Shown piece by piece: positions 1,828-53,940 of a DNA stretch of 57,287 nt. Source of the DNA: Prevotella sp. (GTDB taxonomy: Bacteria; Bacteroidota; Bacteroidia; Bacteroidales; Bacteroidaceae); contig JAFZSI010000071.1 of the NCBI GenBank assembly GCA_017619445.1, forward strand, positions 1 to 57,287, in the 5' to 3' direction. The notes beneath the pieces were generated by a model that worked only from the letters and a program-made list of their open reading frames with translations, searched no databases and was not told the origin of the DNA. Positions within the stretch are counted from its first letter, which is position 1, and every line of letters begins with the position of its first letter. The position numbers were made by a program, and so were the translations under genes.

Positions 1828-3021
1828 ATGGATAGATTGTACAAGACTTATGGCCGCCTGCTTGCGGAAACGGATTTGAGTTTTACCAGGTATCTTTATG
1901 AAAAGATAAACTGGGATAATAGGTTAATTGTGATTAAAGGAGCAAAGGGTGTCGGTAAGACGACGATGCTCCTTCAGCATATCCTACGGACTTTTGAGGA
2001 CAAGCAGAAGGCTCTTTATGCATCACTTGATCATATTTGGTTTGCCAACCATTCAATTCTTGACTTGGCAGAATACCACTATACGCATGGTGGTACTCAC
2101 TTGTTTCTGGATGAGGTACATAAGTACAAAGGGTGGCAGCAGGAAATCAAAAACATCTATGATTCCTATCCGCAGTTGCACGTCGTAGTGACAGGTTCGT
2201 CGATGCTGAAGTTGGAGGAGTCGCTGATGGGTGATCTTTCACGCCGTCATCGCCAATACACGTTGGAGGGATTGTCATTCAGGGAATACCTGCAGTTGGA
2301 TCAGGTGGTTCAGTTGCCAGTTCTCTCTTTAGAAACAATACTGACCGACCATTTCATGCAGGCATCGCAGATTACGTCGAAGGTTAAGGTGCTACAACAT
2401 TTCGAGAAATATCTTGAGACGGGTTATTATCCCTTTTATCGCGAGGAAGGTGACGGCTTTGCAGACCGCCTCCAGCAGGTGATAGAAACTATCGTCACCA
2501 GCGAAATTCCGTCGGTGAGCAATATAGAGTACGACTCTGTCTATAAGGCCAAGCAGTTGTTGGCAGTGCTGGCAGAAAGTTCGCCTTATACATTGAATAT
2601 CTCCGGACTCTGTGTCACGCTACAAGCTTCGCGTAACAATGTTCTAAAGCTAATCGACCTGATGGACAAGGCTGCCTTGGTGCGTCGACTTTACTCTGTT
2701 GATAGCGGGATGAACATGCTGACGAAGCCTGAAAAGGTTCTGTTCTACAACACCAACTTGATGCACTGTCTGACTCCACATGTTGAAGACGGAACGATGC
2801 GTGAGACTTATTTTGCATCACAGGTGGGTGTTGGCCACAGACTCTCAATGCCAAACCAAGGCGATTTAGTTGTAGATGGGAGATGGCTTTTCGAAGTAGG
2901 AGGAAAGAAGAAAGGTTTCAAACAGATAAAAGGAATTGAAGATAGCTACGTTGTTAGCGATGGCATCGATATAGGTCACGGAAAGAAGATTCCGCTTTGG
3001 CTTTTTGGTCTGCTTTATTAA
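1828..3021 (+). CDS. AAA_14 / DUF4143 family ATP-binding protein
   Basis: 397 residues from ATG 1828. The Walker A motif GAKGVGKTT is at residues 38-46 and the Walker B THLFLDEVHKY around 90-100. VVVTGSSMLKLEESL is the sensor-like strand, followed by the RRHRQYTLEGLSFREYL segment that marks the AAA_14 family. The C-terminal half is the DUF4143 region, with a winged-helix part (SGLCVTLQASRNNVLKLIDLM) and a nuclease-like end. Proteins of this family are widespread in Bacteroidales, often as strain-variable singletons; their cellular role is not known. The gene has its own promoter and a degenerate region downstream, which fits an accessory gene. Confidence 0.9.
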   Translation: MDRLYKTYGRLLAETDLSFTRYLYEKINWDNRLIVIKGAKGVGKTTMLLQHILRTFEDKQKALYASLDHIWFANHSILDLAEYHYTHGGTHLFLDEVHKYKGWQQEIKNIYDSYPQLHVVVTGSSMLKLEESLMGDLSRRHRQYTLEGLSFREYLQLDQVVQLPVLSLETILTDHFMQASQITSKVKVLQHFEKYLETGYYPFYREEGDGFADRLQQVIETIVTSEIPSVSNIEYDSVYKAKQLLAVLAESSPYTLNISGLCVTLQASRNNVLKLIDLMDKAALVRRLYSVDSGMNMLTKPEKVLFYNTNLMHCLTPHVEDGTMRETYFASQVGVGHRLSMPNQGDLVVDGRWLFEVGGKKKGFKQIKGIEDSYVVSDGIDIGHGKKIPLWLFGLLY

Positions 3022-3654
3022 TAACTAGTGCAAAAAATGCACAAGTTCGTCAGTATAAGAGTTGTTTAAACAAAGTAAACTGTTCGTATTTTCCGAACAG
3101 TTTCATGAATATCGTGAACGACTTGGGCATTATCTGTCAACCTTATCTAAACTCCTTCGAGGTGCAGTAAAGGCCGTTATCAATTATGTTCAGTTTGGCT
3201 ATCGCAGTTTCTCATATCCTCAGGAGTGCGATGTTAGACACCATATGAATGGCCAGCCGGACAAGGATAAGGCTGCAGATGAGGTATTAATTGCCTCACG
3301 TCCCTTCTTGAAATCGGATGAGTCTGAGCGAGTGAAGGGGCAACTCTCCTATATCGTTCAAGACATGAAGGAAGAACGGCAGCAAAGTCGAAGTCGAGGA
3401 TTCCACATGTAATACTCTGCATTTACAAGTTAGCCAGTAATAATAACTCTTTAGCAATCCGTATCATAGTCCAGTTCAATTCTGAGATGGAATAATTCAT
3501 GGGTGGACAGACTATTGGTGGCAGCAATGGTTGTGCTGATGAACTCACAAACTGGGATGGAACCAAGAAACGAAATGGCAAGGGACGATGATTTTTCTAG
3601 AGAATTGTTGACAGGTGAATCGAAGTATATAAGGTGATATGGCTCTTTCTGTTT
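3022..3654. other. Gene-poor stretch with hairpin and decayed reading frames
   Basis: A perfect 10-bp hairpin (AAACTGTTCG 3077-3086 with CGAACAGTTT 3094-3103) follows the ATPase gene and may act as its terminator. A 116-codon plus-strand frame (3062-3412, TTG start) runs through this hairpin and has no recognisable domain; I do not call it. On the minus strand the reading frame of the TolC-like gene continues for about 68 codons past its TAA stop to about 3447, again with no start codon. A single palindrome box TTTTCTAGAGAATT (about 3593-3606) of the repeat family described elsewhere is present. The region looks like gene remnants. Confidence 0.45.
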
Positions 3655-9574: not shown

Positions 9575-9698
9575 AAATTTTCTAAAGAATTTATCCGTAA
9601 AACATCACTTTGCATTCGTAAACCAATGCTTTGTTTTCATAAACCTACACTTTACGAACATAACTCATAGGATTATGTTCAAATTTTCTAGAGAATTT
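9575..9698. repeat. Palindrome/21-bp module repeat, locus A
   Basis: Two 18-bp palindrome boxes (AAATTTTCTAAAGAATTT 9575-9592; AAATTTTCTAGAGAATTT 9681-9698) flank about four 21-bp modules. Read on the minus strand the modules follow GGTTTACG, four variable bases, CAAAGCATT. The same elements recur at five other loci in the window. Confidence 0.85.
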
Positions 9699-19925: not shown

Positions 19926-20232
19926 TGAAAGAGCCTATGCTTTACGAATGCAAAGCATGTTTACGATTACAATGCGTAGGTTTGCTGTTTCAAAGCGTAG
20001 GTTTATGATAATAGAGTATTGGTTTGTAATTGCAAAGCATCGGTTTATGAGCAAATTTTCTAGAAAATCTGCGTGTAAAGCATAGGGTTTTGCAGCCATC
20101 CTGAACACCACTGACGCAAAGGGGCACTTTATGGATGAATTTTCTAGAAAATCTGGGCGTAAAGCTTAGGGTTGTTGCAGCCATCCTGAACACCAGTGAT
20201 GCAAAGGGGCACTTTATGGATGATTTTTCTAT
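19926..20232. repeat. Palindrome/21-bp module repeat, locus B (with 84-85-bp copies)
   Basis: Five to six 21-bp modules (for example TTTACGATTACAATGCGTAG, TTTGCTGTTTCAAAGCGTAG) run into the palindrome boxes at 20053-20070 and 20137-20154 and a partial one at 20223. The interval between boxes (84 and 85 bases) is itself a repeat containing GCAGCCATCCTGAACACCA. A half box with GTAAAGCATAGGG recurs at 20490-20515. Confidence 0.85.
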
Positions 20233-20239
20233 CTTATAT

Positions 20240-20485
20240 TATTCACGGGAGTTATCTGGAGTTATATGAATTTTTCGCTATCGCTCAACAACACGTCTGC
20301 GAATTCATCGGGAGTTAACGGAAGTTAGCGGACAAATCCGCGATTAAGCGAGAGCCAACCAAGCTTGCTTGAAATTGGCCGAGCGTGAGCGGATTATCTA
20401 ATAGCCAGAGTATTGTCAGTTAACTCCCTGAGCGGTTGAAAACCGCGATAACTTCAGTTAACTCCAGATAACTCCAAGAATAATT
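20240..20485. repeat. GAGTTA-type palindromic element with nested second palindrome
   Basis: The arms contain GGAGTTATCTGGAGTTAT and GGGAGTTAACGGAAGTTAGC on one side and GTTAACTCCAGATAACTCC on the other. The same element, in reverse orientation, is at 46720-46865. Here the arms are interrupted by a 61-bp palindrome (20335-20395, ends AATCCGC/GCGGATT) related to the one at 44951-45007, suggesting insertion of one repeat into another. Confidence 0.8.
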
Positions 20486-31915: not shown

Positions 31916-32103
31916 GAATTTTCTAAAGAATTTCAACGTAAAGTAATGGGTTGTATTTGCCACTCCTGACCCCCATTTAGCAAAGCGCGGGTTTAGCACA
32001 GAATTCTCTAAAGAATTTCAACGTAAAGTTATGGGTTGTATTTGCCGCTCCTGACCCCCGTTTTGCAAAGCGCGGGTTTAGCACAGAATTTTCTAGAGAA
32101 TTT
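31916..32103 (+). repeat. 85-bp tandem composite repeat, locus C
   Basis: Palindrome boxes at 31916-31933, 32001-32018 and 32086-32103 are exactly 85 bases apart. Each interval contains CGTAAAGTAATGGGTTGTAT, CCACTCCTGACCCCC and GCAAAGCGCGGGTTTAGCAC. The same composite unit, in reverse orientation, is at 53764-53866. The flanks 31762-31915 and 32104-32287 hold no gene that I can see. Confidence 0.9.
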
Positions 32104-34547: not shown

Positions 34548-36068
34548 ATGACAGATAATAAGGTTAGGGTGCGTTTTGCACCAAGTCCTACGGGGGCTTT
34601 GCATATCGGCGGTGTGCGCACCGCTTTGTTCAATTATTTGTTTGCTCGCCAGCATGGCGGCGATTTGGTGTTCCGCATTGAGGACACCGACTCCAGCCGT
34701 TTCGTTCCAGGCGCTGAGGAATATATCATTGAGTCGTTCCGATGGCTGGGCATCAAGTTCGACGAGGGCGTGAGCTTCGGCGGCGACAAGGGTCCCTACC
34801 GGCAGAGCGAACGGCGCGACATTTATAAAAAATATGTCAGGCAGCTGCTTGACGAAGGCAAAGCCTACATTGCGTTTGACACGCCCGAGGAGCTGGAGGT
34901 CAAACGCAAAGAGATTCAGAACTTCCAATACGACGCCCGCACACGTGGCATGATGCGCAACTCGCTCACCATGTCGCCGGAGATTGTGCAGGCCGAAATA
35001 GACAACGGCAGCCAGTACGTGGTGCGCTTCCTGATTAATCCCGGCGAGGAAATCGTGGTCAACGACATGATTCGCGGCGAGGTGCGTGTGAAAAGCGACA
35101 TCCTGGACGACAAGGTGCTCTACAAGAGTGCCGACGAGCTGCCCACCTACCATCTGGCAAACATTGTGGATGACCATCTGATGGAAATCACCCACGTCAT
35201 CCGTGGCGAGGAGTGGCTGCCCAGTGCTCCGTTGCATGTGCTGCTCTACCGCGCCTTCGGATGGGAACAGACCATGCCTCGTTTTGCCCACCTGCCGTTG
35301 CTGCTGAAACCCGAGGGCAAGGGCAAACTGAGCAAGCGCGACGGCGACCGTCTGGGCTTCCCAGTGTTCCCGCTGGAATGGCACGACCCCAAGACTGGCG
35401 AGGTGAGCTCGGGCTTCCGCGAGAGCGGCTATTTCCCCGAGGCTGTGGTGAATTTCCTTGCCCTGTTGGGATGGAATCCCGGCACAGAGCAGGAGCTGTT
35501 CTCGCTCGATGAACTGGTCAAGGCATTCGACATCAGCCGTTGTTCCAAGGCTGGTGCCAAGTTCGACTATCAGAAAGGCATCTGGTTCAACCATGAATAC
35601 ATCCTGCGCAAGAGCAACGAAGAGATTGCCCAGCTGTTTGCGCCCATCGTGGCCAACAACGGTGTTGACGAGTCGTTGGAACGCGTCACGAAGGTGGTGT
35701 CGATGATGAAAGACCGTGTGAATTTCGTCAAGGAACTGTGGCCCTTGTGCTCGTTCTTCTTCATTCCACCCATGGAGTACGATGAGAAAACGCGAAAGAA
35801 GCGCTGGAAAGAGGACTCGGCGCAGTGCATGACCGAATTGGCCGAGCTGTTGGAAGGTCTCGACGACTTCTCTCTCGAAAACCAGGAGCGCGAGGTGGAG
35901 GCCTGGATTGAGCAGAAAGGCTATAAGCTGGGCAACATCATGAACGCATGGCGGTTGACGCTGGTGGGCGAGGGCAAAGGCCCTGGCATGTTCGACATCT
36001 CAGCATTCTTAGGCAAGGAAGAGACGCTCCGCCGTATGCGCCGCGCCATCGAGGTGCTTGAGAATTAA
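34548..36068 (+). CDS. gltX: Glutamyl-tRNA synthetase
   Basis: 506 residues. Class I aminoacyl-tRNA synthetase that charges tRNA-Glu in the cytoplasm. [14 protein letters not shown] holds the HIGH-type motif (His19-Ile-Gly-Gly22) and KLSKRDG at residues 260-266 is the KMSKS loop. [11 protein letters not shown] and [17 protein letters not shown] are further family signatures. The anticodon-binding C-terminal domain is present and the length is normal. It begins a run of plus-strand genes, but the waaA gene is 115 bases away behind a 66-bp repeat element, so co-transcription is uncertain. Confidence 0.97.
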
Positions 36069-36131
36069 CTTCGTTGATTTTTGTCACGACTCAGCCAATC
36101 ATGCATGCATGTTGGCGTTCGCTGCTCCAAT
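36066..36131 (+). repeat. 66-bp dispersed palindromic repeat, copy 1
   Basis: From the gltX stop onward: TTAACTTCGTTGATTTTTGT, then CACGACTCAGCC, then a hairpin ATCATGCATGCATGTTGGC and CGCTGCTCCAA. An almost identical element (3 mismatches in 66) is at 41503-41568. Its core GCCA...TGGC hairpin resembles those of the 5039-5236 array and of 20335-20395. Confidence 0.85.
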
Positions 36132-36183
36132 AATTGACAATTGATAATTATGCATTATGCATTAAAAACAGTAAATACGTAAT

Positions 36184-38451: not shown

Positions 38452-38536
38452 AAACGAATTAGAATAATTAGCATAATTCTCACGAATAATATCTTTTTTT
38501 ACTGAAATTATTATTTCTAATTATTCTAATTCGTTT
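38452..38536. repeat. 20-bp perfect inverted repeat between convergent genes
   Basis: AAACGAATTAGAATAATTAG (38452-38471) and its exact complement at 38517-38536 with a 45-base AT-rich loop. It lies between the waaA operon terminator and the end of the LRR gene. It may serve the minus-strand transcript. Confidence 0.8.
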
Positions 38537-38556
38537 CCTAAATCAAAACTAACGCA

Positions 38557-41502: not shown

Positions 41503-41568
41503 TTAACTTCGTTGATTTTTGTCACGACTCAGCCAATCATGCAAGCATGTCGGCATTCGCTGCTCCAA
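41503..41568 (+). repeat. 66-bp dispersed palindromic repeat, copy 2
   Basis: Matches the copy at 36066-36131 at 63 of 66 positions. Flanked on the left by simple repeats of TTGATAATTGACAG (41467-41502). Confidence 0.85.
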
Positions 41569-41680
41569 AAATTGATAAACAGACATAAATGACAAAGGGC
41601 TTCTCTATAACCTCTATACATCTGTGTAAGAAAAGAGAAAATGTCAGAAACACATACCTGCGCATTAGAATCACAAACCT

Positions 41681-41822
41681 GCACTTTACGAGCGCAAAGC
41701 ATAGGTTTATGGATAAAATTTCTATAAAATTTGATGATATAGTTTGGGTTAGTGTTGAATTATATAGAAAATGTGTGTGTAAAGCGTCGCTTTACAACAG
41801 CAGTGTGTAGGTTTATGAGAAC
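41681..41822. repeat. Palindrome/21-bp module repeat, locus D (diverged)
   Basis: CTTTACGAGCGCAAAGCATA and GGTTTATGGAT modules lead into a palindrome box AAAATTTCTATAAAATTT (41715-41732). Degenerate modules (GTAAAGCGTCGCTTTACAAC; GTGTAGGTTTATGAGAAC) follow. Confidence 0.7.
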
Positions 41823-45782: not shown

Positions 45783-45809
45783 CAGGCCGCTTGGATGCGT
45801 TAGCAACAG

Positions 45810-46040
45810 ATTTTCTAAAGAATTTGTCGGCAAACCGCCGGTTTACGACGCTAAAGCATAGGTTTACGTTCACAAAGCGCAGGTTTGCGTTCACAAAGCA
45901 TCGCTTTACGGCCCCAAAGCTTAGGTTTACGAATGAATTTTCTAAAGAATTCATCCCTAACCCATGCATTACGCAGAAATTTTCTAGAAAATTTGAGAAC
46001 AAAGCGATGGTTTACGGAAATAAAGTGCAGGTATGTGTCC
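45810..46040. repeat. Palindrome/21-bp module repeat, locus E (clearest copy)
   Basis: Box 45810-45825, then four 21-bp modules in a row (starting GTTTACGACGCTAAAGCATA, GTTTACGTTCACAAAGCGCA, GTTTGCGTTCACAAAGCATC, CTTTACGGCCCCAAAGCTTA). Next come a box at 45936-45951, a box AAATTTTCTAGAAAATTT at 45977-45994 and two more modules to about 46040. It fills the whole gap between pdxJ and the DJ-1-family gene; no gene is seen in it. Confidence 0.9.
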
Positions 46041-53745: not shown

Positions 53746-53940
53746 ACTCATCACTTTACGTTCATATTTTCTAGAAAATTCTGTGCTAAACCTGTGCTTT
53801 GCAAAACTGGGGTAGGGAGTGGCGAATACAACTCATAGCTTTACGTTCAAATTCTCTAGAAAATTCTGTGCTAAACCTGTGCTTTGCAAAACTGGGGTAG
53901 GGAGTGGCGAAAACAACTCATTGCTTGGCGAAAACAAAGC
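53746..53940 (-). repeat. 85-bp tandem composite repeat, locus F
   Basis: Boxes ATATTTTCTAGAAAATTC (53764-53781) and AAATTCTCTAGAAAATTC (53849-53866) are 85 bases apart. The intervals hold GTGCTAAACCTGTGCTTTGC and GGGGTAGGGAGTGGCGAA, the reverse complement of locus C. No gene. Confidence 0.9.

What the first reader, a model, noticed from the sequence alone, without database searches (positions are those of the whole stretch)
45810..46040. Modular repeat family: 18-bp palindrome plus 21-bp modules at six intergenic loci
Seen directly: boxes close to AAATTTTCTAGAAAATTT recur at 9575, 9681, 20053, 20137, 31916, 32001, 32086, 41715, 45810, 45936, 45977, 53764 and 53849. Between or beside them are modules of 21 bp with the shape GGTTTACG, four variable bases, CAAAGCATA. 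All copies are between genes. In locus E four modules stand head to tail with the 21-bp step kept exactly while about a third of the bases vary. 21 bp is two helical turns. The module sequence drifts, but the palindrome stays, which suggests that a protein or a replication/recombination enzyme recognises it. It does not fit CRISPR (spacers are not unique, boxes too short) or a simple MITE.
Basis: partly seen in the sequence, partly recalled or inferred. Interest (0 to 1): 0.75.

Follow-up and report, generated by a model that had tools for sequence, protein, structure and literature searches.

The report
Likely binding-site arrays of nucleoid protein
Many small, regularly spaced DNA motifs lie between the genes of this Prevotella-type bacterium, and the same motif stands in front of genes for a family of DNA-packaging proteins (HU-HIG), so the arrays are probably docking platforms for those proteins, written in a spelling that changes from species to species.

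Summary
In detail: all 13 boxes exist, between genes, far above chance. They belong to a genome-wide family: 86 boxes at 63 loci in the 745 kb sampled, none inside a called gene. Boxes and 21-bp modules form one helically phased (10.5 bp) array of symmetric sites. The arms do not covary, so the unit is double-stranded DNA, not a hairpin. The general box is AATTYTC-NN-GARAATT. Its second home is upstream of a subgroup of HU-HIG (HU/IHF-superfamily) genes. Of 70 such loci examined, 42 carry an exact box within 700 bp (77 boxes against 0.25 expected), mostly as pairs 65 bp apart (33 of 38 pairs) around unconserved sequence. In the window's genome and its relative G215 the box follows the -7 promoter element of these genes at a fixed distance. 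Box and subgroup co-occur across 398 genomes (83/97 versus 44/301, not corrected for kinship). Two window arrays persist at orthologous places in G215 with modules rewritten into the G215 "dialect". Best reading: dispersed binding platforms of an autoregulated HU-HIG protein, working like IHF-binding RIB elements but unlike them in sequence. Binding is inferred; a linked VapE gene or an unlinked regulator remain rivals.

The parts
9575..9698 (.). array A: box 9575-9592, phased half-sites, box 9681-9698 (106 apart)
19939..20154 (.). array B: modules from 19939, boxes 20053-20070 and 20137-20154 (84 apart)
31916..32103 (.). array C: boxes 31916-31933, 32001-32018, 32086-32103 (85, 85); an array with 85-bp spacing stands at the orthologous place in G215
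41683..41815 (.). array D: module 41683-41703, box 41715-41732, degenerate box 41757-41774 (42 apart)
45808..46035 (.). array E (the finding): boxes 45808-45825, 45935-45952, 45977-45994; an array stands at the orthologous place in G215 with different modules
45840..45923 (+). four head-to-tail 21-bp modules within array E
53764..53866 (.). array F: boxes 53764-53781 and 53849-53866 (85 apart)

Best explanation
The arrays are dispersed double-stranded DNA binding platforms for an HU-HIG protein (HU/IHF superfamily; the subgroup whose members in this genome begin like MKYRMVKENRPTLKN.GRWKAVAVHE). A dimer probably reads the box AATTYTC-NN-GARAATT as a nucleation site; further copies bind the flanking 21-bp symmetric units on the same face of the helix, giving a short bent or wrapped filament between genes. 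The same box at the promoters of these HU-HIG genes would make the protein repress itself. In the window's genome and in G215 the genes have multiplied (7 and 4 found) and the platforms have spread to intergenic spacers, where they may insulate or compact neighbouring transcription units. Shown: array anatomy, phasing, absence of hairpin constraint, intergenic placement, box at HU-HIG promoters, co-occurrence, persistence of two window loci with dialect change. Inferred: that HU-HIG is the binder, autorepression, filament formation, insulation.
For: Of 70 subgroup loci with enough DNA, 42 have an exact box within 700 bp upstream, 77 boxes against 0.25 expected from each genome's own box density at a nominal 3 Mb; 11 of the other 28 have boxes 2.19-2.35 kb upstream, in front of the VapE gene that lies between. 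Of 38 neighbouring box pairs 33 are exactly 65 bp apart, 4 are 66 and 1 is 64; in the 33 (32 genomes) the 47 bp between are 36% identical, while the outer A and T, not part of the search, are kept in 57 and 56 of 66 boxes. A third, imperfect box (at most 2 mismatches) starts 44-60 bp before the gene in 16 of 70, against 3, 3, 0, 0 and 0 in five control slices of the same width in 68-71 loci. In G000 and G215, 8 of 10 subgroup promoters read TAnnTTTG-N5-box (two of the 8 with a box of 4 mismatches), and the other two have TTATTTTG in the same place. Flanking modules there are of the genome's own kind. Co-occurrence in 398 genomes: 83 of 97 with the subgroup have the box, 44 of 301 without (Fisher 6e-38); all 18 genomes with 20 or more boxes have the subgroup. 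G000 and G215 rank first and second in box number (168, 106) and in subgroup matches (8 pieces of 7 genes, 4; others at most 3, with at most 10 candidates scored per genome). No arm covariation in 99 boxes (z -0.85); period 10.5 bp. The VapE-type gene is not found in G000, which has the most boxes.
Against: No binding experiment exists. HU proteins are mostly known as non-specific. The association across related genomes is not corrected for phylogeny, and many upstream regions are orthologous. Of 18 genomes with 3 or more boxes and no subgroup hit at 1e-12, 13 have only weaker matches to the query and 5 (G122, G247, G265, G330, G406) none at 0.001, although G122 is 99% complete. Two genomes of the stricter subgroup set (G080, G236) have no exact box. 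L232 and L236 lack a box in about 2.2 kb upstream. Dispersed arrays keep away from gene starts (medians 256-262 bp), so they do not look like ordinary promoter operators. G353 and G247 carry arrays of the G215 and G000 kind, but the subgroup was not found in their incomplete assemblies. Only 3 of 7 syntenic G000 array places are occupied in G215, and that sample was not random.
Confidence: 0.6

Rival explanations
1. The box is the operator of an unlinked regulator, not of HU-HIG: a separate protein controls the HU-HIG/VapE module and also binds the dispersed arrays.
For: The evidence for protein reading fits any symmetric DNA binder; five genomes with 3 or more boxes show no match to the subgroup query at 0.001.
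Confidence: 0.17
2. The box pair is the origin (iteron) or operator of the VapE-type primase-helicase (BT4734-like N plus VapE-like domain) beside HU-HIG, a replication module of a mobile element, and the dispersed copies are leftovers.
For: Box pairs lie in front of the VapE gene or between divergent VapE and HU-HIG genes; families of such primases with VirE/VapE-type domains are linked to mobile elements (PMC5862659, passages); 11-bp repeats stand in the same intergenic region (by eye).
Against: No PF08800 match in G000 (85% complete) and only two low-scoring ones in G215 (E 4e-7 and 3e-6, above the family cut-off), the two most box-rich genomes; G302 and G406 (14 and 13 boxes) have none; 5 of 13 box-less control genomes do have PF08800 matches.
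Confidence: 0.12
3. The arrays are selfish REP-like repeats moved by a transposase such as RAYT.
For: High copy number, intergenic; one RAYT-like gene in G000 (NF047646, 38 bits, below its cut-off of 80) with a module-like stretch at its 3' end (by eye); relatives of it in 10 of the 13 strict-box genomes; 4 of 7 syntenic places are array-free in G215, two of them much shorter there.
Against: RAYT relatives are in 230 of 398 genomes, the strict box in 13; 30 RAYT loci (G000's and 29 others) hold no box with 0 or 1 mismatch; several carry other palindromes; box symmetric, no arm covariation; two arrays persist at orthologous places.
Confidence: 0.08
4. The arrays are RNA hairpins (terminators or mRNA stabilisers).
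For: Palindromic; in gaps of 200-400 bp they favour convergent gene pairs (10 of 19, tandem 8 of 45, divergent 0 of 34).
Against: No compensatory change between arms in 99 boxes, combined z -0.85; inside module units only weak correlation at the A/T triplets (combined z 1.8); no Rfam match at the window arrays; long divergent gaps (400 bp or more) hold arrays as well, 15 of 22.
Confidence: 0.03

Closest known systems
RIB/RIP (BIME-1) elements bound by IHF in Escherichia coli
   Same: Dispersed intergenic repeats at 3' ends of transcription units, bound by an HU/IHF-superfamily protein (Boccard and Prentki 1993, not held; seen as a title in reference lists and as one sentence of PMC2817692)
   Different: Different sequence; 21-bp phased arrays; the same site stands at the promoters of the candidate protein; no REP units seen; binding not tested
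REP/REPIN elements with RAYT transposases
   Same: Small palindromes, high copy, intergenic
   Different: No hairpin covariation; RAYT distribution and RAYT flanks do not match
BrickBuilt MITE of Porphyromonas gingivalis (PMC4596501, abstract and outline seen)
   Same: Bacteroidales, intergenic, tandem units of about two helical turns (23 nt)
   Different: 19 copies with leader, tail and small inverted-repeat ends; here far more boxes, no fixed ends seen, modules differ between species
HU at inverted repeats: E. coli hupA and P. gingivalis PG0121 (PMC3969353, abstract, outline and passages)
   Same: HU-type protein, inverted repeat at a promoter, negative autoregulation in E. coli
   Different: There a cruciform or stem-loop structure is proposed; here a linear symmetric site, repeated genome-wide

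Membership tests
RIB/RIP (IHF-binding BIME-1) | dispersed intergenic placement, towards 3' ends | tested here: met
   0 of 86 boxes in called genes; in tandem gaps median 154 bp after the upstream stop and 256 bp before the next start
RIB/RIP (IHF-binding BIME-1) | two opposed REP palindromes around an IHF site (PMC2817692 passage) | tested here: not met
   flank profiles show box plus 21-bp units only
RIB/RIP (IHF-binding BIME-1) | specific binding of an HU/IHF-superfamily protein | not testable with these tools
   only indirect: promoter position and co-occurrence
REP/RAYT | RAYT gene flanked by the same repeat (recalled) | tested here: not met
   no box with 0 or 1 mismatch in 30 RAYT loci, G000's among them; a module-like stretch lies at the 3' end of G000's gene
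REP/RAYT | hairpin-forming repeat with compensatory arms (recalled) | tested here: not met
MITE | fixed terminal inverted repeats and target duplication at empty sites | tested here: inconclusive
   four G000-only places against G215 printed and read by eye, no shared boundary seen
CRISPR | unique spacers between near-identical repeats | tested here: not met
   the stretches between boxes are degenerate repeats of one module
HU-HIG protein family (PF18291), for the linked genes | match above the curated cut-off | tested here: met
   L238 protein 58.3 bits, L150 protein 53.9, L070 protein 48.4, cut-off 26.2

The most novel reading that the evidence does not exclude
A sequence-reading nucleoid protein of the HU family and its many chromosomal docking arrays co-evolve as a code: the box and the helical grid stay fixed while the module 'dialect' is rewritten in concert across the genome, at old places and new ones, so that each Prevotella species organises its chromosome by its own spelling of one grammar.
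Probability: 0.3. Interest if true: 0.9.

Novelty: new variant of a known kind. Interest (0 to 1): 0.76.

Why it matters
HU-type proteins are usually thought of as near non-specific packers. A conserved box, near-exact spacing and promoter placement give a testable specific target for the HU-HIG family. In the held library the name HU-HIG turned up in 4 papers; the one I opened, on a Bacteroides strain, has it once as an annotation in a table, and by their titles the other three are unrelated. The dialect change at orthologous arrays is a natural experiment on how genome-wide binding sites follow a changing DNA-binding protein, an open question for nucleoid proteins and regulators in general.

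Tried and rejected
RAYT transposase as mover of the box: searched and rejected on flanks and distribution (the print-out was cut, so one search scanned all 30 loci). RNA element: Rfam on the window gave four tRNAs and a 5S rRNA; covariation tests negative. A common neighbour gene at boxes in box-poor genomes: 24 loci listed, HU-HIG beside three of them; this was the lead. VapE as reader: weakened. Period in G215 flanks (50 flanks): best period 10.4 bp but below permutations, not claimed. Empty-site boundaries: too diverged to call. Solved structures: only weak hits (SPO1 TF1 1exe E 0.068, HU 5eka E 0.077). The stricter HU set (E at most about 5e-24) was chosen after seeing the data.

Full report
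CHECK. All 13 boxes and the 21-bp modules of the finding are present. Eleven boxes have at most 3 mismatches against 0.03 expected, two have 4; modules 10 against 0.11, one of these inside a gene. The window is the whole of contig C6 of an unnamed 2.87-Mb draft genome, 85% complete. Genome-wide the pattern TTTTCTANANAATTT has 128 and 138 matches, the reversed pattern none. In 745,324 bp taken as stretches there are 86 boxes with at most one mismatch to AATTYTCNNGARAATT, in 63 clusters; the same DNA read backwards has none. Genome-wide there are 168 exact ones.

ANATOMY. Aligning 138 flanks on the box gives NNN-CGTAAASC-NNN-GCTTTG and so on, with information peaks about every 10-11 bp; in 172 flanks of 90 bp the best period is 10.5 bp, above all 300 permutations. 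A module is thus a symmetric unit CGTAAASC-NNN-GSTTTACG, and the box is a special symmetric unit on the same grid; box-to-box distances under 260 bp are 42, 84/85, 106 and 148, with 127 and the exceptions 50, 156 and 336 under a looser match. Array E of the finding is box, four clear modules, box, one unit, box. If the palindromes served as hairpins, opposite arm positions should covary. In 99 distinct boxes they do not (combined z -0.85 for 24 offsets); at the Y/R positions of the box mismatched T-G and C-A combinations (48) are as common as complementary ones (47). Inside module units the A/T triplets correlate weakly (combined z 1.8). So what is conserved is a double-stranded site with two-fold symmetry, read on one face of the helix.

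CONTEXT. None of 86 boxes lies inside a called gene, with 80% coding in the sample (own simple gene caller). Of gaps of 100 bp or more, 19 of 52 convergent, 27 of 161 tandem and 15 of 71 divergent ones hold a box. Length matters: at 100-200 bp 2 of 105 gaps hold one; at 200-400 bp 10 of 19 convergent, 8 of 45 tandem and 0 of 34 divergent; at 400 bp or more 7 of 12, 19 of 44 and 15 of 22. In tandem gaps the median distance is 154 bp from the upstream stop and 256 bp to the next start; in divergent gaps 262 bp to the nearest start. The arrays keep their distance from gene starts; long divergent gaps are not avoided.

RELATIVES. The strict box AATTTTCTAGARAATT is in 13 of 398 genomes of the genus: 213 strand matches in G000, 101 in G215, 1 to 10 elsewhere. 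Elsewhere the box stands alone or as pairs 65 bp apart and mostly with quite different flanks. The relative G215 appears to be a named assembly: its contig C39 has the length (63,698) and gene position of OMZS01000019.1, uncultured Prevotellaceae bacterium isolate RUG107; that RUG means rumen is recalled. No call named the window's own species.

THE LEAD. In 24 loci of box-poor genomes an HU-like gene stood beside the box in three (L067, L070, L125); places of the HU-HIG family (PF18291) in 13 box genomes added G101:C64 and G062:C70. Some of these five are orthologous to each other, so they are perhaps two or three independent cases. In G000 five of six HU-HIG-subgroup genes with DNA upstream have a box with at most 3 mismatches 145-178 bp before the gene; the sixth has one of 4 mismatches further off; a seventh lies at a contig end. 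The subgroup is found in 97 of 398 genomes at E 1e-12, at most 10 candidates scored per genome. Its upstream regions showed that the box is more general, AATTYTC-NN-GARAATT with the middle two bases free. This general box is in 127 of 398 genomes; the reversed control is in about 20, never with more than 2 sites. Of 97 genomes with the subgroup 83 have the box, of 301 without it 44 (Fisher 6e-38); with a stricter subgroup set chosen afterwards 80 of 82 against 47 of 316; all 18 genomes with 20 or more boxes have the subgroup (lists typed). The genomes are related, so the p-values are not to be taken at face value.

UPSTREAM REGIONS. One search counts 124 matches. I examined 72 loci: 30 it returned, 40 fetched from its listing, and two (G101, G298) that I already knew to have boxes. 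Two were too short. Of the 70, 42 have an exact box within 700 bp, 77 boxes in all against 0.25 expected from the box density of each genome at a nominal 3 Mb. A window 1.5-2.2 kb upstream holds a box in 1 of 33. Of the 28 without a near exact box, 11 have one or two at 2.19-2.35 kb, in front of a VapE-type gene (BT4734-like N plus VapE-like domain). Of the other 17, 11 also have that gene but the fetched DNA ends inside it or within about 110 bp of its start; L168 (G000) and L169 (G215) have degenerate boxes; L191 has a one-mismatch box at -688; L235 had only 287 bp; L232 and L236 lack a box in about 2.2 kb. Of 38 neighbouring pairs 33 are 65 bp apart, 4 are 66, 1 is 64. In the 33 (32 genomes) the boxes are 94-95% identical (partly by selection), the 47 bp between only 36%, outer flanks 33-34%; the first and last base of the 18-mer, not in the search pattern, are A in 57 and T in 56 of 66. 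A third, imperfect box starts 44-60 bp before the gene in 16 of 70, against 0 to 3 in five control slices.

PROMOTERS IN G000 AND G215. Eight of ten subgroup genes read TAnnTTTG-N5-box, two of them with a box of 4 mismatches; the other two have TTATTTTG in the same place. TAnnTTTG as the Bacteroidetes -7 element is recalled knowledge. The box thus covers the presumed start site, where a bound protein would repress. Flanking it are modules of the genome's own kind: in G000 AAAGCATAACTTTGCG-GTG-box-GGC-CATAAAGC-TGT-GCTTTAGA (L152), in G215 CGTCGTGAGTTATTTCC (L167). Of 172 flank sides in the G000 sample 17 have the look-alike TAnnTTTAC-N4-box and 3 the form TAnnTTTGC-N4-box, two of those 3 being HU-HIG promoters. 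I infer that some dispersed arrays are promoter-like with the -7 element disabled.

DIALECTS. Tokens GTAAAGC, GTAAACC and CAAAGC occur 0.44, 0.34 and 0.62 times per flank in G000 (172 flanks) and 0.04, 0 and 0.08 in G215 (50 flanks); GTCGTGAG and GTGAGATA 0.62 and 0.56 in G215 and 0 in G000. Two arrays of the window have counterparts in the same intergenic region of G215, flanking genes 78-85% identical: 85-bp box spacing at 31916-32103 and 127-bp at 45808-45952, but with modules of the G215 kind; 85 bp is the commonest spacing, 127 bp is rare. Over 29 syntenic gaps between the fetched parts, 7 hold G000 boxes, 3 of them G215 boxes as well (one is an HU-HIG promoter), 22 neither, none G215 only (Fisher 0.0096; for the 9 gaps of 150 bp or more in both, 3 of 5 against 0 of 4, p 0.12). 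This sample is not random: the three shared places came from regions fetched for the window's arrays or for HU-HIG genes. Two G000-only places look like array-free sites in G215. So arrays are both kept and gained or lost.

MECHANISM. The most economical reading is a specific HU-HIG protein that represses its own gene from the box and spreads along phased units, and for which the chromosome carries many platforms, placed away from gene starts. What supports HU-HIG over the neighbouring VapE gene: PF08800 was not found in G000 (incomplete assembly), only two low-scoring matches in G215, the two richest genomes, none in G302 and G406 (14 and 13 boxes), and 5 of 13 box-less control genomes have it. 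What speaks against: of 18 genomes with 3 or more boxes that lack the subgroup at 1e-12, 13 have weaker matches and 5 none at 0.001; G406 has neither gene. Insulation, compaction or silencing as the purpose of the dispersed arrays is inference.

KNOWN KINDS. It works like the IHF-binding RIB elements of E. coli but shares neither sequence nor REP units; membership in REP/RAYT is not met; MITE is undecided. Searches for print on HU-HIG, Prevotella intergenic repeats, BIME and IHF, Bacteroidales nucleoid proteins and VapE-type genes listed nothing that I recognised as this; I saw listings only, except the abstracts and passages named above. Subscription papers are not held, so absence from print is not shown.

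Noticed in passing
L051 790-1935 (G000:C47:58985-60127) and L079-L107: RAYT-like transposases (matches in 230 of 398 genomes): several of those read by eye carry a palindrome of the type GTTGCGACTCAGTCGCAAC inside or beside the gene, perhaps their own REP.
   Followed up: partly
window 36066-36137 and 41504-41573: A second repeat of about 70 bp (TTAACTTCGTTGATTTTTGTCACGACTCAGCCAATCATGC...GCTCCAA) occurs at these two places.
   Followed up: no
L158 about 3010-3230; window about 20235-20268: A small element with inverted ends (GGAGTTATC/GATAACTCC) splits a box at CTAG, with CTAG on both sides; a similar end sequence lies in the window near array B.
   Followed up: no
window 38453-38541: Long AT-rich inverted repeat ACGAATTAGAATAATTA...TAATTATTCTAATTCGT between genes; similar stretches at many places of G215.
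   Followed up: no
L170-L192, between divergent VapE-like and HU-HIG genes: 11-bp repeats of the type ATGTAGGCTTT, several copies, between the box pair and the HU-HIG gene in some loci (by eye); they look like iterons.
   Followed up: no
L062, L074 (G247) and L061, L073, L126 (G353): Arrays in the G000 and the G215 dialect occur in two further genomes in whose incomplete assemblies the HU-HIG subgroup was not found; contaminant contigs are possible.
   Followed up: no
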